A stretch of 36,925 bases of DNA from assembly GCA_003241845.1 (NCBI GenBank), contig QBMN01000021.1:1-36925 (forward strand), written 5' to 3'. Both the position numbers and the translations under genes were made by a program. How positions within the stretch are numbered: position 1 is the first letter of the stretch; each line of letters begins with the position of its first letter. Source of the stretch: Shackletoniella antarctica (GTDB taxonomy: Bacteria; Cyanobacteriota; Cyanobacteriia; Phormidesmidales; Phormidesmidaceae). Of the stretch, positions 1,260 through 30,730 are shown in pieces. Below the pieces are notes generated by a model. It did no database searches. It saw nothing but the letters and a program-made list of their open reading frames with translations, and was not told where the DNA came from.

Positions 1260-1325
1260 TACCAAGTCCACCGCGAGATCCGTAGTTTTCCCACGGGCAG
1301 AACCCCACTTCTAGACTCAATTTGG
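1260..1325. repeat. MITE-like palindromic element, family B, copy 1
   Basis: About 66 bp starting TACCAAGTCCA and ending ATTTGG. It contains the core GTAGTTTTCCCACGGGCAGA, which recurs almost unchanged in opposite orientation at 30666-30730. The right end lies one base from the stop codon (1327-1329) of the neighbouring minus-strand gene. The terminal inverted repeat has decayed in this copy (ACCAA survives on both sides). It has no coding capacity, so any mobility would need a transposase elsewhere. Confidence 0.6.
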
Positions 1326-21568: not shown

Positions 21569-21855
21569 GAAGGGAAGGGTAAAAGGGAAGGGTAGATGAG
21601 AGCGGTTTACGGCCCAAAAGCCAGCGATACTCTAAATCTTGCTCTTCATTATGGAGGATTCGCCCGATTTATCCATGCCACCTTGTGACGATTTTTCTGT
21701 AGCTAACGGGTTAGGGAAAGTATCCTCACTCCTGACCATCTAGATAGCCCAGAACAGAGTCAACCGGCGGTAGATTCTGTTCCCTGCCTCGTTGCTGCTA
21801 ATCTCCGCTGCGTCCACCAGCTCTAGCCTTTGGCGGTAGCCCTCACCACTGACTC

Positions 21856-21959
21856 ATACCAAATCCTGCTTGTTCATCCCCGATTCAACTAGGCGCATGC
21901 AATGCGCCCCTACGGTTTGGCGTTTTGGGAATCGGGGTTATGTGATTCGGATTTGGTAT
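21856..21959. mobile_element. 104-bp MITE-like element, family A, copy 1 (touches gatA stop)
   Basis: ATACCAAATCC at 21856-21866 is mirrored by GGATTTGGTAT at 21949-21959. The centre contains the palindrome GGCGCATGCAATGCGCC. The reverse complement matches 25883-25969 over most of its length, so this is a repeated element. Its last base pair is the A of the gatA TGA stop. The rest of the 390-bp gap (21569-21855) shows no gene, only AT/GC-mixed DNA with no clear hairpin. Confidence 0.7.
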
Positions 21960-23410
21960 CACTTATTCTCTGGCACCCGCTTGTGCCACTCCGTCGCCTG
22001 CTCGTAGGCATAGCCCACCTCAAACAGCAGGTCTTCGCGCAGGGCATTGCCGATGATCTGTAGACCGATGGGCAAGCCCTGGTCGTCAAAGCCGCAGGGC
22101 AGGCTCAGCCCCGGCAAACCGGCCAGGTTAACCGGAATCGTCATCAGGTCAGAGAGATACATACTGAGCGGATCATCGACCTTTTCGCCCGCTTTAAAGG
22201 CGGTGGTGGGGGCGGTGGGGCACACCAGCACATCCACCTGGCTGAAGGCAGTTTCGAAGTCTTGCTTGATCAGAGTGCGTACTTTTTGGGCCTTGAGGTA
22301 GTAGGCGTCGTAGTAGCCCGCCGACAGCGCATAGGTGCCGATCATGATACGGCGCTTGACCTCGGCCCCAAAGCCCTCGGCCCGAGTTTTGGTGTACATC
22401 GACATCAGGCTGTCACTGTTGCTGCGGGCACCGTACTTAACTCCGTCGTAGCGGGCCAGGTTGGACGAGGCCTCTGAGGGCGCAATGATGTAGTAGGTGG
22501 GCAAACCGTAGGCGAACCGGGGGCAGGAGATCTCTTGAACCTCAGCGCCGAGATCCTTAAGCTGCTGAATGGCGGTGGCGGTGGCGGCTCTCACCTGCGG
22601 GTCAATGCCCTCGGCGGCAAAGGTTTCGGTAATAATGCCAACCTTGCGGCCTTTGAGGCCGGTCTTGAGGTACTGGCTGTAGTCGGGAACTTTGACATCG
22701 AGACTAGTGGAGTCGCGGGGGTCGTGGCCCGCAATGCCCTGGAGCAGTAGGGCGGCATCTTCTACGGTGCGGGTCAGCGGGCCGATCTGATCGAGCGAGG
22801 AGGCGTAGGCCACCAGACCAAAGCGCGACACCAAACCATAGGTGGGCTTGAGCCCCACCACACCGCAAAACGAGGCGGGCTGGCGGATCGAGCCGCCTGT
22901 ATCTGACCCCAGGGCAGCGGCGCATTCCCCAGCGGCCACGGCGGCAGCAGAGCCACCGGAGGAGCCGCCCGGTACGCGGGTGACATCCCAGGGGTTGCCG
23001 GTGACCTGGTAGGCAGAGTTTTCGGTGGAGCTGCCCATGGCAAACTCGTCGAGGTTGGTTTTGCCCAGAGCGATCGCCCCTGCATCTCGCAGCCGCCCGG
23101 TCACGGTCGATTCGTAGGGGGGCACAAAGTTCTCTAGAATTTTTGACCCGCAGGTGGTGCGCACGCCCTCGGTGCAGAGATTATCTTTGAGCGCGATGGG
23201 AATACCGCTCAGCATACCGATATCTTCGCCAGCGGCAATGCGGGCATCGACCTGGGCCGCCTGGGCCAGAGCCTGATCGCCTGTCACCGTCAGGTAGCTG
23301 TGAAGGGTGGGTTCCAGGGCTGCAATCTGGTCAAGGTATGCCTGGGTGATCTCTACCGCAGAGCGTTCTTTGCTAACCAGCTGTTGATGCAGAGCGCGGA
23401 TGACAGACAT
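21959..23410 (-). CDS. gatA: Glu-tRNA(Gln)/Asp-tRNA(Asn) amidotransferase subunit A
   Basis: A 483-residue amidase that releases ammonia from glutamine for GatCAB, which converts mischarged Glu-tRNA(Gln) to Gln-tRNA(Gln). The Ser-cisSer-Lys triad is intact: Lys75 (IALKDNLC), Ser150 ([10 protein letters not shown]) and Ser174 ([10 protein letters not shown]). Length and the [11 protein letters not shown] and [14 protein letters not shown] blocks are normal. AAGGAG precedes the ATG at good spacing. The stop codon abuts a palindromic element. gatB and gatC are not in the window, as is usual in cyanobacteria, where the genes are scattered. Confidence 0.98.
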
Positions 23411-24287: not shown

Positions 24288-25904
24288 ATGGCACACACTA
24301 CGCTATTTCAGCTGTTGCAGCGGGCCGTTGCGAAGGCGTCTTGGGCTGAAAACTGTTCTGAATCTAATAATTCTAAATCGTCAGCAGGGGCAACCCTGTC
24401 GCGGCGGAGCCTGCTGCGCTGCTCGGCCCTGGCGGCAGGCACGCTGGCCCTTGGAGAATTCAACCCCCGAGGGTTCAATACGGTAGACGGCGGCCCCCGC
24501 ATTGCGATCATAGGGGGCGGCATCGCCGGGTTAAATGCGGCTTACACCCTGCAAAAGCTGGGCCTATCGGCCACCATTTACGAGGCCAAGCCCTACGTGG
24601 GCGGACGCATTCAGTCGCGGCAGGGGCTGGTGGTGCCGGGTCTGGTGAATGACCTGGGGGCTGCGTTTATCAATTCAGAGCACGCTGACATGCTTGCTCT
24701 GGTGGCAGATCTGGGCTTAGAGCTGTTTGATCGCCGCACCCTGACCGAAACGCTGCCTTTTCCAGAGGTGGCCTTTTACTTTGGGGGGCGCACCATTAGT
24801 GAGGCCGAACTGGTGGAGGCGCTGCTGCCTCTGGCTGAGCAGATTGGCCGAGATGGGTCGCTGCTGCTGGAGGATTTTGACCGCTACGCCCCTCAGTTTG
24901 ACGCGCTGTCGGTGGCCGATTATCTAGACTTTCACCAGGACAAGGTGGGGCGGCGGTACGTGCGATCGCTGCTCGAAGCCACCATTCGCACCGAGTACGG
25001 GGTCGAGGCCCACGAGTCGTCTGCGCTACAGCTGATCTACAACCTGCCTCGGGTGCGCAATCGTCGGGCTGAGCCACTGACTGCCGATGAGCTGTTCTTG
25101 GTCAAGGGCGGCACCGGGCGCATTCCCCAAGCCTTGGCGGCGCGGTTAGAGCATTCTGTAAAAACCGGCTGGCGGCTGCGATCGCTCCAGAGCCAGGGCG
25201 ACGAGTTTCGCCTCAGTTTTGATCAGGGCACGGTTGCAGCCGACTACGTGATTTTGGCCCTGCCCTTTCCGGCGCTGCGGCGAGTCAACCTAGCCCTAGA
25301 TTTGCCCGATACGTTACGACAGTTCATCGCCGAGTGCGGCCCTGGCCGCAATGAAAAGCTGTTTGCGGGGTTTACCCATCGCCCCTGGCTACAGCCCCGA
25401 GGGTTTACCGGCGGAGCCTGGAGCGACCTGGGCTACAGCGGCCTGTGGGATGACACCCAGCGCCAGCCCGAGCACCGCCAGGGGGTGCTGACCTTCTTTT
25501 TAGGGGGCGATGAACTGGGCCGAGCCGAGGGGAATGTGGCGGAGCGGGGGCGAGAGCTGGTGGGCCGTACGGTGCCTTATTTGAGAGAACTGGAGGGGGC
25601 GGCGGGCGATCGCTACGCCCGCACCGCCTGGGCCAAAGACCCAGATTTTGGCGGGGCCTACAGCACCTTTGGGCCGGGGCAATACCTCAAATTCAAAGAC
25701 TTTCTCTATGTGGAGTCTGACCAGCCAACGGAGCGGCAAACGGTAGCCGTGGGCAACCTGGCTTTTGCCGGCGAGCAGTTTAGCGATGAGTACTACGGCT
25801 ACATGAATGGAGCGGCCCAGACCGGAAGACTGGCGGCGGGGGCGATCGCCGCTAGTTGGCTAGGACAACGACAGTTGACCTCATACCAAATCCGAATCGC
25901 CTAA
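24288..25904 (+). CDS. Flavin monoamine oxidase / L-amino-acid-oxidase-like protein with Tat-type signal
   Basis: A 538-residue FAD enzyme. Residues ~38-55 carry a twin-arginine-like signal (LSRRSLLRCSALAAGTLALG), so export of the folded flavoprotein is likely. The dinucleotide-binding motif is RIAIIGGGIAGLNAAYTLQ with the downstream EAKPYVGGRIQS. The C-terminal FAD motif is LAFAGEQFSDEYYGYMNGAAQTG. Blocks LVKGGTGRIPQALAARL and YVILALPFPALRR fit the amine-oxidase family. It should oxidise an amine or amino acid, releasing peroxide and ammonia. The last six codons (YQIRIA) and the stop lie inside a repeated element, so the native C-terminus was probably different. ATG 24288 has no clear SD. 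Confidence 0.85.
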   Translation: MAHTTLFQLLQRAVAKASWAENCSESNNSKSSAGATLSRRSLLRCSALAAGTLALGEFNPRGFNTVDGGPRIAIIGGGIAGLNAAYTLQKLGLSATIYEAKPYVGGRIQSRQGLVVPGLVNDLGAAFINSEHADMLALVADLGLELFDRRTLTETLPFPEVAFYFGGRTISEAELVEALLPLAEQIGRDGSLLLEDFDRYAPQFDALSVADYLDFHQDKVGRRYVRSLLEATIRTEYGVEAHESSALQLIYNLPRVRNRRAEPLTADELFLVKGGTGRIPQALAARLEHSVKTGWRLRSLQSQGDEFRLSFDQGTVAADYVILALPFPALRRVNLALDLPDTLRQFIAECGPGRNEKLFAGFTHRPWLQPRGFTGGAWSDLGYSGLWDDTQRQPEHRQGVLTFFLGGDELGRAEGNVAERGRELVGRTVPYLRELEGAAGDRYARTAWAKDPDFGGAYSTFGPGQYLKFKDFLYVESDQPTERQTVAVGNLAFAGEQFSDEYYGYMNGAAQTGRLAAGAIAASWLGQRQLTSYQIRIA

Positions 25905-25969
25905 CCCTGATTTCTACAAGGACAAACCGCAGGGGCGCATTGCATGCGCCTGGTTGAATCGGGGGTAAC
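25883..25969. mobile_element. MITE-like element, family A, copy 2 (reads into the amine oxidase gene)
   Basis: ATACCAAATCCGAATC followed by an AACCC(T/C)GATT block, CAAACCG(C/T)AGGGGCGCATT, GCATGCGCCT and GTTGAATCGGGG matches the reverse complement of 21856-21959 with few changes. The left end is intact; the right end is lost after about 25969. The element supplies the last base of a Ser codon, six further codons and the TAA of the amine oxidase gene. Confidence 0.7.
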
Positions 25970-26092: not shown

Positions 26093-26818
26093 CTAGTCGC
26101 GGTTGATGGCGATCAGCAGACGCAGAATGAAGACAAACAGGTTGATGTAGGTGAGGTACATCGACAGGGCTGCCGACAGGTACTGCTCGTCTTTATAGGT
26201 GCGGGGCAGAATGAAGAAATCCACCACCGAAGCGCCGCAAAACACCAGCACGCCAAAGGCCGAAATGGCGATGTCGAGAAACTGGGGAACAGGGCCACCA
26301 AACAGGGAAAAGACAAACTGACCCACCACCGCCAGCAGCACAGCGACAACGCCCATGCCGATGGTTTTGGTGAGGGCGAAGCCGTCTTCTTCAGACAGGT
26401 TAGAGCCGATCTGGCGGGCGGCAATAAAGACGACACCGCAGGCCAGGGCCGATGCCCCAATGCCGGTCACGCCGACCCCAGCAGTACCCAGTGCTACCGC
26501 CAGCAGACCGCTGAGGGTGTAGCCCGTCAGCAGGCTGTAGGTGGCCAGCAGGGGCAGGGCAGTGCTGTCGTTGCCCTTAGAGGCGACGTTCATCGCCACA
26601 AAGAACAGCGCAATTTGAGCAATGAGCGCCACCCAAAAGGTGGGCATAAAAATGGCCGGGTTGGTGGCCATTACGCTCAGACCGCCAAAGGAGCCTAAGG
26701 CAGTCAAAATCAGCCCGCCGCCGACGAAGGGCAGCGCTTTTTTAATTACGTTGGGGCCGATGAGAGTCTGGCCCTTAGCCTTGCTGATGGCTTCACGAAA
26801 GTTGCTGGTATTACTCAA
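26093..26818 (-). CDS. Bax inhibitor-1 / YccA family membrane protein
   Basis: A 241-residue protein with about seven hydrophobic helices: ALPFVGGGLILTALGSFGGL, MPTFWVALIAQIALFFVAM, LATYSLLTGYTLSGLLAVAL, IGASALACGVVFIAARQI, GVVAVLLAVVGQFVFSLFG, FLDIAISAFGVLVFCGASVV and YLTYINLFVFILRLLIAI. The YLTYINLFxxxLRLL end with nearby acidic residues is the BI-1 signature region. Family members act as pH-sensitive Ca2+ leak channels or interact with membrane proteases. The start is TTG at 26818, supported by GAGGA at 26826-26830 and by the expected SNTSNFREA N-terminus; no ATG is available for 50 codons. Confidence 0.9.
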   Translation of the reverse strand: MSNTSNFREAISKAKGQTLIGPNVIKKALPFVGGGLILTALGSFGGLSVMATNPAIFMPTFWVALIAQIALFFVAMNVASKGNDSTALPLLATYSLLTGYTLSGLLAVALGTAGVGVTGIGASALACGVVFIAARQIGSNLSEEDGFALTKTIGMGVVAVLLAVVGQFVFSLFGGPVPQFLDIAISAFGVLVFCGASVVDFFILPRTYKDEQYLSAALSMYLTYINLFVFILRLLIAINRD

Positions 26819-30665: not shown

Positions 30666-30730
30666 CATCCAAGTCCAGAAGTGGAGTTCTACCTGTGGGA
30701 AAACTACAGATCCCGATCTGGACTTGGTAT
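30666..30730. mobile_element. MITE-like palindromic element, family B, copy 2
   Basis: CCAAGTCCAGA (30669-30679) is perfectly mirrored by TCTGGACTTGG (30717-30727), and the outer bases AT/AT extend it. Its reverse complement carries the same TAGTTTTCCCAC core seen at 1260-1325. It lies 12 bp past mscL. Ends (ATACCAAGTCC) resemble those of family A (ATACCAAATCC), so both may use one transposase. Confidence 0.65.

What the first reader, a model, noticed from the sequence alone, without database searches (positions are those of the whole stretch)
25883..25969. A repeated MITE-like element supplies the last codons and stop of the amine oxidase gene
The element beginning ATACCAAATCC at 25883 is a near-copy (opposite orientation) of 21856-21959. 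The amine oxidase reading frame runs into it, so SYQIRIA and the TAA stop are element-derived. This is a visible case of a small non-coding element rewriting a protein C-terminus.
Basis: seen in the sequence. Interest (0 to 1): 0.6.

Follow-up and report, generated by a model that had tools for sequence, protein, structure and literature searches.

The report
Mobile repeat supplies a protein's tail
A small mobile DNA repeat landed in the end of an amine oxidase gene of a cyanobacterium and now encodes its last six amino acids and stop; sister copies do the same to a few other genes or sit exactly in stop codons, a real but largely known kind of effect.

Summary
Window 25884-25966 is a right-truncated, inverted copy of a 102-bp mobile repeat (MITE), TACCAAATCC...GGATTTGGTA; the intact window copy is 21857-21958. 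None of 10 homologue tails read has YQIRIA; the sister gene lacks the element and ends WPASLPGC. But the tail is unconserved and lies outside the Pfam domain, so the change is probably neutral.

Beyond the finding: four other copies give genes a second element-encoded tail (TKSESHNPDSQKAKP-like). For an amidohydrolase, homology to 25 of 25 other genomes stops at, or within nine residues of, the element border. TAA and TGA are themselves TNA targets: 15 of 111 copies examined sit exactly in a stop codon, gatA in this window included (10 of 55 testable, 3.65 expected, P=0.0013). The likely parent is a 1147-bp IS with an IS630-type transposase but a TNA duplication. MITE-derived C-termini are published for other bacteria, so this is a new member of a known kind.

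The parts
24288..25904 (+). Amine oxidase ORF, 538 aa; host codons 1-532, element codons 533-538 (YQIRIA) and TAA
   Evidence: Translation; PF01593 E 1.3e-50 at residues 79-520
25881..25883 (+). Left copy of the target duplication, TCA, in frame as Ser532
   Evidence: TNA duplication exact in 17 of 23 copies; sequence. The right copy is lost here, so the duplication at this site itself is inferred from the family
25884..25966 (-). Truncated MITE copy, inverted relative to 21857-21958; its right ~20 bp are lost
   Evidence: 88% over 82 nt; best matches elsewhere are other copies in the same genome, 86-88%; native flank from 25967
25884..25904 (+). Element-encoded tail YQIRIA and stop TAA
21857..21958 (+). 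Intact 102-bp MITE copy with perfect 10-bp ends
   Evidence: folds as one hairpin, -40.8 kcal/mol, z -5.5
21854..21856 (.). Left target duplication TCA of the intact copy
   Evidence: L034
21959..21961 (-). Right target duplication TCA of the intact copy, which is the TGA stop codon of gatA (21959-23410, minus strand)
   Evidence: PF01425
26027..26060 (.). Terminator-like hairpin between the amine oxidase and the convergent Bax1-I family gene (26093-26818, minus strand)
   Evidence: PF01027

Best explanation
A non-autonomous transposon (MITE), of a family probably derived from an IS630-type insertion sequence, transposed into the TCA codon near the 3' end of the amine oxidase gene. It cut off the old tail and put six element codons and a TAA in its place; a later deletion removed the element's right end and some native DNA. 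The same can recur because the element's ends carry fixed short reading frames: the right end gives YQIRI(T/A)* when the duplicated TNA is itself a codon, and TKSESHNPDSQ.AKP* in the next frame. The family accumulates at gene ends because insertions inside genes are lost and because its TNA target includes the stop codons TAA and TGA, which the duplication restores. Shown here: the family, its ends, the TNA duplication, the reading frames, the differing tails, the stop-codon overlaps. Inferred: the order of events at this gene, near-neutrality for the enzyme, and that the IS630-type transposase moves the MITE.
For: Multi-copy family with perfect ends and TNA duplication; present in 22 of 26 genomes of the genus. 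Frame enters the element and stops at its TAA. Sister lacks it and has another tail; 0 of 10 homologue tails has YQIRIA. A more distant homologue shares GTTGACCTC in frame just before the border and then reads GHITAA*, as expected if the insertion was into coding DNA. Four more genes with an element-encoded tail; amidohydrolase homologues in 25 of 25 other genomes match only to residue 413-422, border after 413.7. IS with the same ends and TNA duplication.
Against: The right duplication at this site is lost, so the insertion point cannot be proved from the site alone. The tail is unconserved already upstream of the border, so homologues do not show a sharp switch. Two relatives carry elements 13 bp after the native stop, which leaves room for insertion outside the frame followed by a deletion. 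No expression or protein data.
Confidence: 0.8

Rival explanations
1. The element first landed just after the native stop codon, as in two relatives, and a short deletion then removed the stop and fused the frame to the element. The tail is element-derived either way, but the fusing event was a deletion.
For: In CCT1 (L069) and LEGE 06152 (L066) relatives of the element start 13 bp after the TAG stop of the same gene. Delihas 2007 and the Coxiella EnhC case describe lost stops or indels that join a gene to a repeat (passages).
Against: The left TNA (TCA) is in place and in frame next to the intact tip. The window copy is closest to other copies of its own genome, and the CCT1 copy is not among its matches at E<=1e-6, so it is not the same insertion. 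The homologue L031 continues in frame past the same point.
Confidence: 0.17
2. The overlaps with gene ends mean nothing beyond where insertions are tolerated; there is no preference for stop codons.
For: My ORFs were called with a simple codon score trained on 11 window ORFs; the test was made after the first cases were seen; sites near promoters may be purged; tip choice favoured TNA.
Against: The null compares only TNA sites within the same non-coding gap and gives 10 of 55 against 3.65 expected, P=0.0013. Of the five stop-overlapping ORFs sent to Pfam, four are recognised families.
Confidence: 0.4
3. The element-encoded tails are used: they were kept because they help the protein or its mRNA (for example by a stable 3' hairpin).
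For: Intact copies fold strongly and lie at 3' ends of genes.
Against: The window copy has lost its right arm and no longer folds better than shuffles (z -0.9). The tail lies outside the domain and changes freely between species. Only a few of 111 copies give a tail.
Confidence: 0.05

Closest known systems
RU-1/ERIC repeat fusions in enterobacteria (Delihas 2007, PMC2759123; passages read)
   Same: A short mobile repeat at the 3' end of a gene removes the normal stop and encodes a C-terminal extension beyond the conserved domain (amidase ECA3499).
   Different: Unrelated repeat; TA duplications reported there, TNA here.
QMITE1/QMITE2 of Coxiella burnetii (PMC5896051; passages read)
   Same: MITE copies overlap gene 3' ends by 1-50 bp and supply C-terminal residues (EnhC in strain Dugway).
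   Different: Different sequence, size and duplication (7-9 bp for QMITE2).
RUP of Streptococcus pneumoniae (107 bp, thought to be moved by IS630-Spn1; passage in PMC2229807)
   Same: About the same size and copy number; ends shared with an IS630-type element.
   Different: RUP inserts at TA; this family duplicates TNA, and its parent's one readable empty site holds no TA.
IS1031 group of the IS5 family (passage in PMC12016507)
   Same: 3-bp TNA target and direct repeat.
   Different: Different terminal repeats and transposase family; the likely parent here is IS630-type.
Rickettsia palindromic elements (review PMC10969869, passages)
   Same: Mobile repeats that add peptides to unrelated proteins.
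   Different: RPEs sit in frame inside ORFs; here in the pooled copies none lay inside a called ORF with 60 bp on both sides, and only gene ends are affected.

Membership tests
MITE | Short, multi-copy, no transposase gene | tested here: met
   102 bp; 44 matches in one genome, 22 of 26 genomes of the genus
MITE | Terminal inverted repeats | tested here: met
   Perfect 10-bp ends in the intact copy; both tips recognised in 24 of 30 copies
MITE | Target-site duplication | tested here: met
   TNA identical on both sides in 17 of 23. In the pool, exact in 42 of 69 with both tips, where tip choice favoured TNA
MITE | Ends shared with an autonomous IS | tested here: met
   1147-bp IS, both ends alike; that it moves the MITE was not tested
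IS630 family (likely parent IS) | IS630-type transposase | tested here: met
   NF033545: C-terminal half 141.3 bits, N-terminal half 71.5 bits, cut-off 100; DDE_3 and HTH_33. The two halves lie in overlapping frames
IS630 family (likely parent IS) | TA target duplication (recalled rule; RUP passage in PMC2229807) | tested here: not met
   TNA duplicated exactly in 5 of 6 copies; empty site joined at TCA restores an IS5 transposase without a gap. So it works with an IS630-type transposase but is not a typical member
IS1031 group (IS5 family) | TNA target with an IS5-type transposase | tested here: not met
   TNA met, transposase not: IS630-type. PF13340 gave no match in the window's genome; other IS5-type transposases do occur there

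The most novel reading that the evidence does not exclude
A lineage of IS630-type elements has changed its target from TA to TNA. Its MITEs thereby use stop codons (TAA, TGA) as self-repairing landing sites and repeatedly hand neighbouring genes one of a few ready-made C-terminal peptides, so that one mobile repeat seeds the same tail on unrelated proteins across the genus.
Probability: 0.4. Interest if true: 0.6.

Novelty: new member of a known kind. Interest (0 to 1): 0.4.

Why it matters
It gives a clean, countable example of how a non-coding repeat adds codons to unrelated proteins, and suggests a simple rule, a target that contains stop codons, that lets a transposon sit at gene ends without harm. 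It also warns annotators that identical C-terminal peptides on unrelated Nodosilinea proteins can come from a repeat.

Tried and rejected
Parent IS: PF13340 in four genomes gave no match in the window's genome, and none of the 23 loci listed had a good pair of MITE tips around it. PF01609 loci (23) were not parents either, but one (L268) proved to be split by the likely parent IS.

Same insertion inherited at the amine oxidase locus: rejected for the window copy, because its best matches are in its own genome and its sister lacks one. The CCT1 and LEGE 06152 elements both start 13 bp after the stop; I judged them different by eye only, did not align them, and cannot exclude that those two share one insertion.

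Papers: searches showed no description of this family in what they listed, which for most was only part of the hits: 15 of 41, 15 of 37 (57), 15 of 456 (64), 10 of 49 (65), 10 of 22 (80). That is no proof that none exists. In one search four papers held the terms; I opened one, where 'TNA' matched another word; the other three I saw in the listing only. Six papers were seen in passages; none was read whole.

Results against a simple story: for the EamA gene (L156) only 7 of 14 other loci could be read to the stop by my script, the rest were dropped, and two of the seven end one residue past the border. For the kinase-like gene (L190) eight homologues have long variable tails and no sharp border. 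The cupin gene (L059) was not compared with homologues. L174 was flagged as running into an element, but its tip is unclear and it is not counted. In one search three homologues (L003, L005, L007) were read on the wrong strand and not used; L002, L004, L006 repeat L065, L064, L068. A check was off by one base and redone. An early note gives 18-19 of ~24 exact duplications; the right count is 17 of 23. A first script failed on a missing file.

Full report
What is there. The window lies in a 4.7-Mb draft genome (G000:C133) whose nearest named relatives are Nodosilinea and Leptolyngbya. Element 1 (21857-21958) is an intact 102-bp element with perfect 10-bp ends TACCAAATCC...GGATTTGGTA that folds as one hairpin (-40.8 kcal/mol, z -5.5). 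Element 2 (25884-25966) is an inverted, 88% similar copy whose right ~20 bp are gone; native DNA shared with the sister species resumes at 25967 (24 of 37 bases, 0 of 100 shuffles as good). The truncated copy no longer folds better than chance (z -0.9).

Borders. Thirty of the 44 matches in the genome were fetched. Of these, 23 have both tips and both flanks, and in 17 the three bases outside the tips are the same on both sides and read TNA. So A25883 belongs to the target duplication TCA (25881-25883), which is exactly codon 532. The element gives TAC CAA ATC CGA ATC GCC TAA, i.e. YQIRIA and the stop. The intact copy in this orientation and frame would give YQIRIT*. The right-hand duplication at this site is lost with the element's end.

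Homologues. The amine oxidase domain (PF01593) covers residues 79-520. Tails of 10 distinct homologues were read: none has YQIRIA; four end in -LA. The nearest (88% identical, MAG Leptolyngbya sp. DLM2.Bin27, sister in the tree with support 99/99) has no element there and ends ..SWLKRRWWPASLPGC, where the window has ..SWLGQRQLTS|YQIRIA. The tails differ already upstream of the border, so this gene alone shows no sharp switch. A more distant homologue (L031) shares GTTGACCTC in the same frame just before the border and then reads GHITAA*, which fits direct insertion into coding DNA. In CCT1 (L069) and LEGE 06152 (L066) relatives of the element start 13 bp after the native stop of the same gene. 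The window copy's closest matches are other copies of its own genome, so this gene end took at least two separate insertions, perhaps three. In PCC 7104 (L067) the frame runs through a terminator-like hairpin instead (by eye). The tail is a drifting zone.

Is it a one-off? I pooled 111 copies from three genomes (57 G000, 37 G012, 17 G003). The loci came from match lists, cut short for G012 and G003, and are not every copy. Six were flagged as having a flanking ORF that ends inside the element; five are clear and one (L174) is not. All five enter through the same end. Besides the amine oxidase they are an amidohydrolase (L058..KWSHTKFESHNPDAQNAKL*), a cupin protein (L059..TKSEPYNPDSIKAKP*), an EamA transporter (L156..NTKSESHSPDSQKAKP*) and, in G012, a diacylglycerol-kinase-like protein (L190..NTKSELHNPDSQTAKP*). 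For the amidohydrolase, all 25 other genomes searched match only up to query residue 413-422, with the element border after 413.7; of 14 other homologues read, 13 end at 413-415 and one at 420. For the EamA protein, the 7 of 14 homologues that could be read end at 307-317, border 315.7. For L190 eight homologues have long variable tails and no sharp border. L059 was not compared.

Stop codons as targets. The duplication of element 1 is the stop codon TGA of gatA. Seven relatives end gatA within a few residues of the same place, six with TAG and one with TGA. In the pool, 15 of 111 copies have the duplication exactly at the in-frame stop of a flanking ORF. Since TAA and TGA are TNA, some of this is expected. 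I therefore compared each copy with the other TNA sites of its own non-coding gap. Fifty-seven copies have both tips and TNA on both sides; two were dropped because the joined site fell inside a called ORF. Of the other 55, 10 are in stop codons against 3.65 expected, P=0.0013; the other five of the 15 lack a tip or a TNA on one side. Caveats: simple ORF calls, a test made after the first cases were seen, and tip choice that favoured TNA.

Likely parent. One search showed by chance an apparently complete IS in G012: 1147 bp between TCA duplications, with ends TACCAAATCCGACTTGTATACC.. and ..GGGGGTATGTGACTCGGATTTAGTA, like both ends of the MITE. Its two overlapping ORFs meet near a run of seven A, which suggests a frameshift (inferred). 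They match the IS630 transposase profile (NF033545; 71.5 and 141.3 bits, cut-off 100), HTH_33 and DDE_3. Relatives of its C-terminal half occur in 15 of 26 genomes. Of 16 loci scanned for tips, six IS copies from five genomes have both close tips, and in five the TNA duplication is exact; a more distant relative (L297) has weaker tips and TAA/TTA flanks. One copy sits in an IS5 transposase gene: joining its flanks at one TCA gives RRLGGLSVAMPV, without a gap there against intact RRLGRLSVALPV of Leptolyngbya boryana. That target holds no TA. That IS630 elements normally duplicate TA is recalled, with support from the RUP passage in PMC2229807. In the window's genome only a 56-residue relic of this transposase was found (77%), in a draft of 287 contigs.

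What it means. Precedents are published: RU-1 fused to an amidase (PMC2759123), QMITE overlaps in Coxiella (PMC5896051), RPEs in Rickettsia (review PMC10969869); I read passages only. So the finding is a new member of a known kind. The TNA target with self-restoring stop codons, from an IS630-type parent, is the part most likely to be new.

Noticed in passing
L268:324-1470 (same IS as in L291), L292, L293, L294, L315: IS with an IS630-type transposase in two overlapping frames whose target duplication is 3 bp, TNA, instead of the TA recalled for IS630; one empty site confirms TCA.
   Followed up: partly
window 1260-1317 and 30672-30729: A second inverted pair (84% over 58 nt) with a related tip, TACCAAGTCC; perhaps another MITE family of the same kind.
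   Followed up: no
L066, L069 just after the amine oxidase stop: Relatives of the element both start 13 bp after the TAG stop of the same gene in LEGE 06152 and CCT1; shared insertion or a favoured site.
   Followed up: partly
L067 (PCC 7104), amine oxidase 3' end: The reading frame runs through what looks like the terminator hairpin, so the last residues are terminator-derived.
   Followed up: no
L064, L066, L068, L069 amine oxidase tails: Four of 10 homologue tails of different length end in -LA; drift or a weak C-terminal signal.
   Followed up: no
L102 (G000:C229:8540-8940): An element-like tip after TAA is followed by what looks like another insertion inside the element.
   Followed up: no
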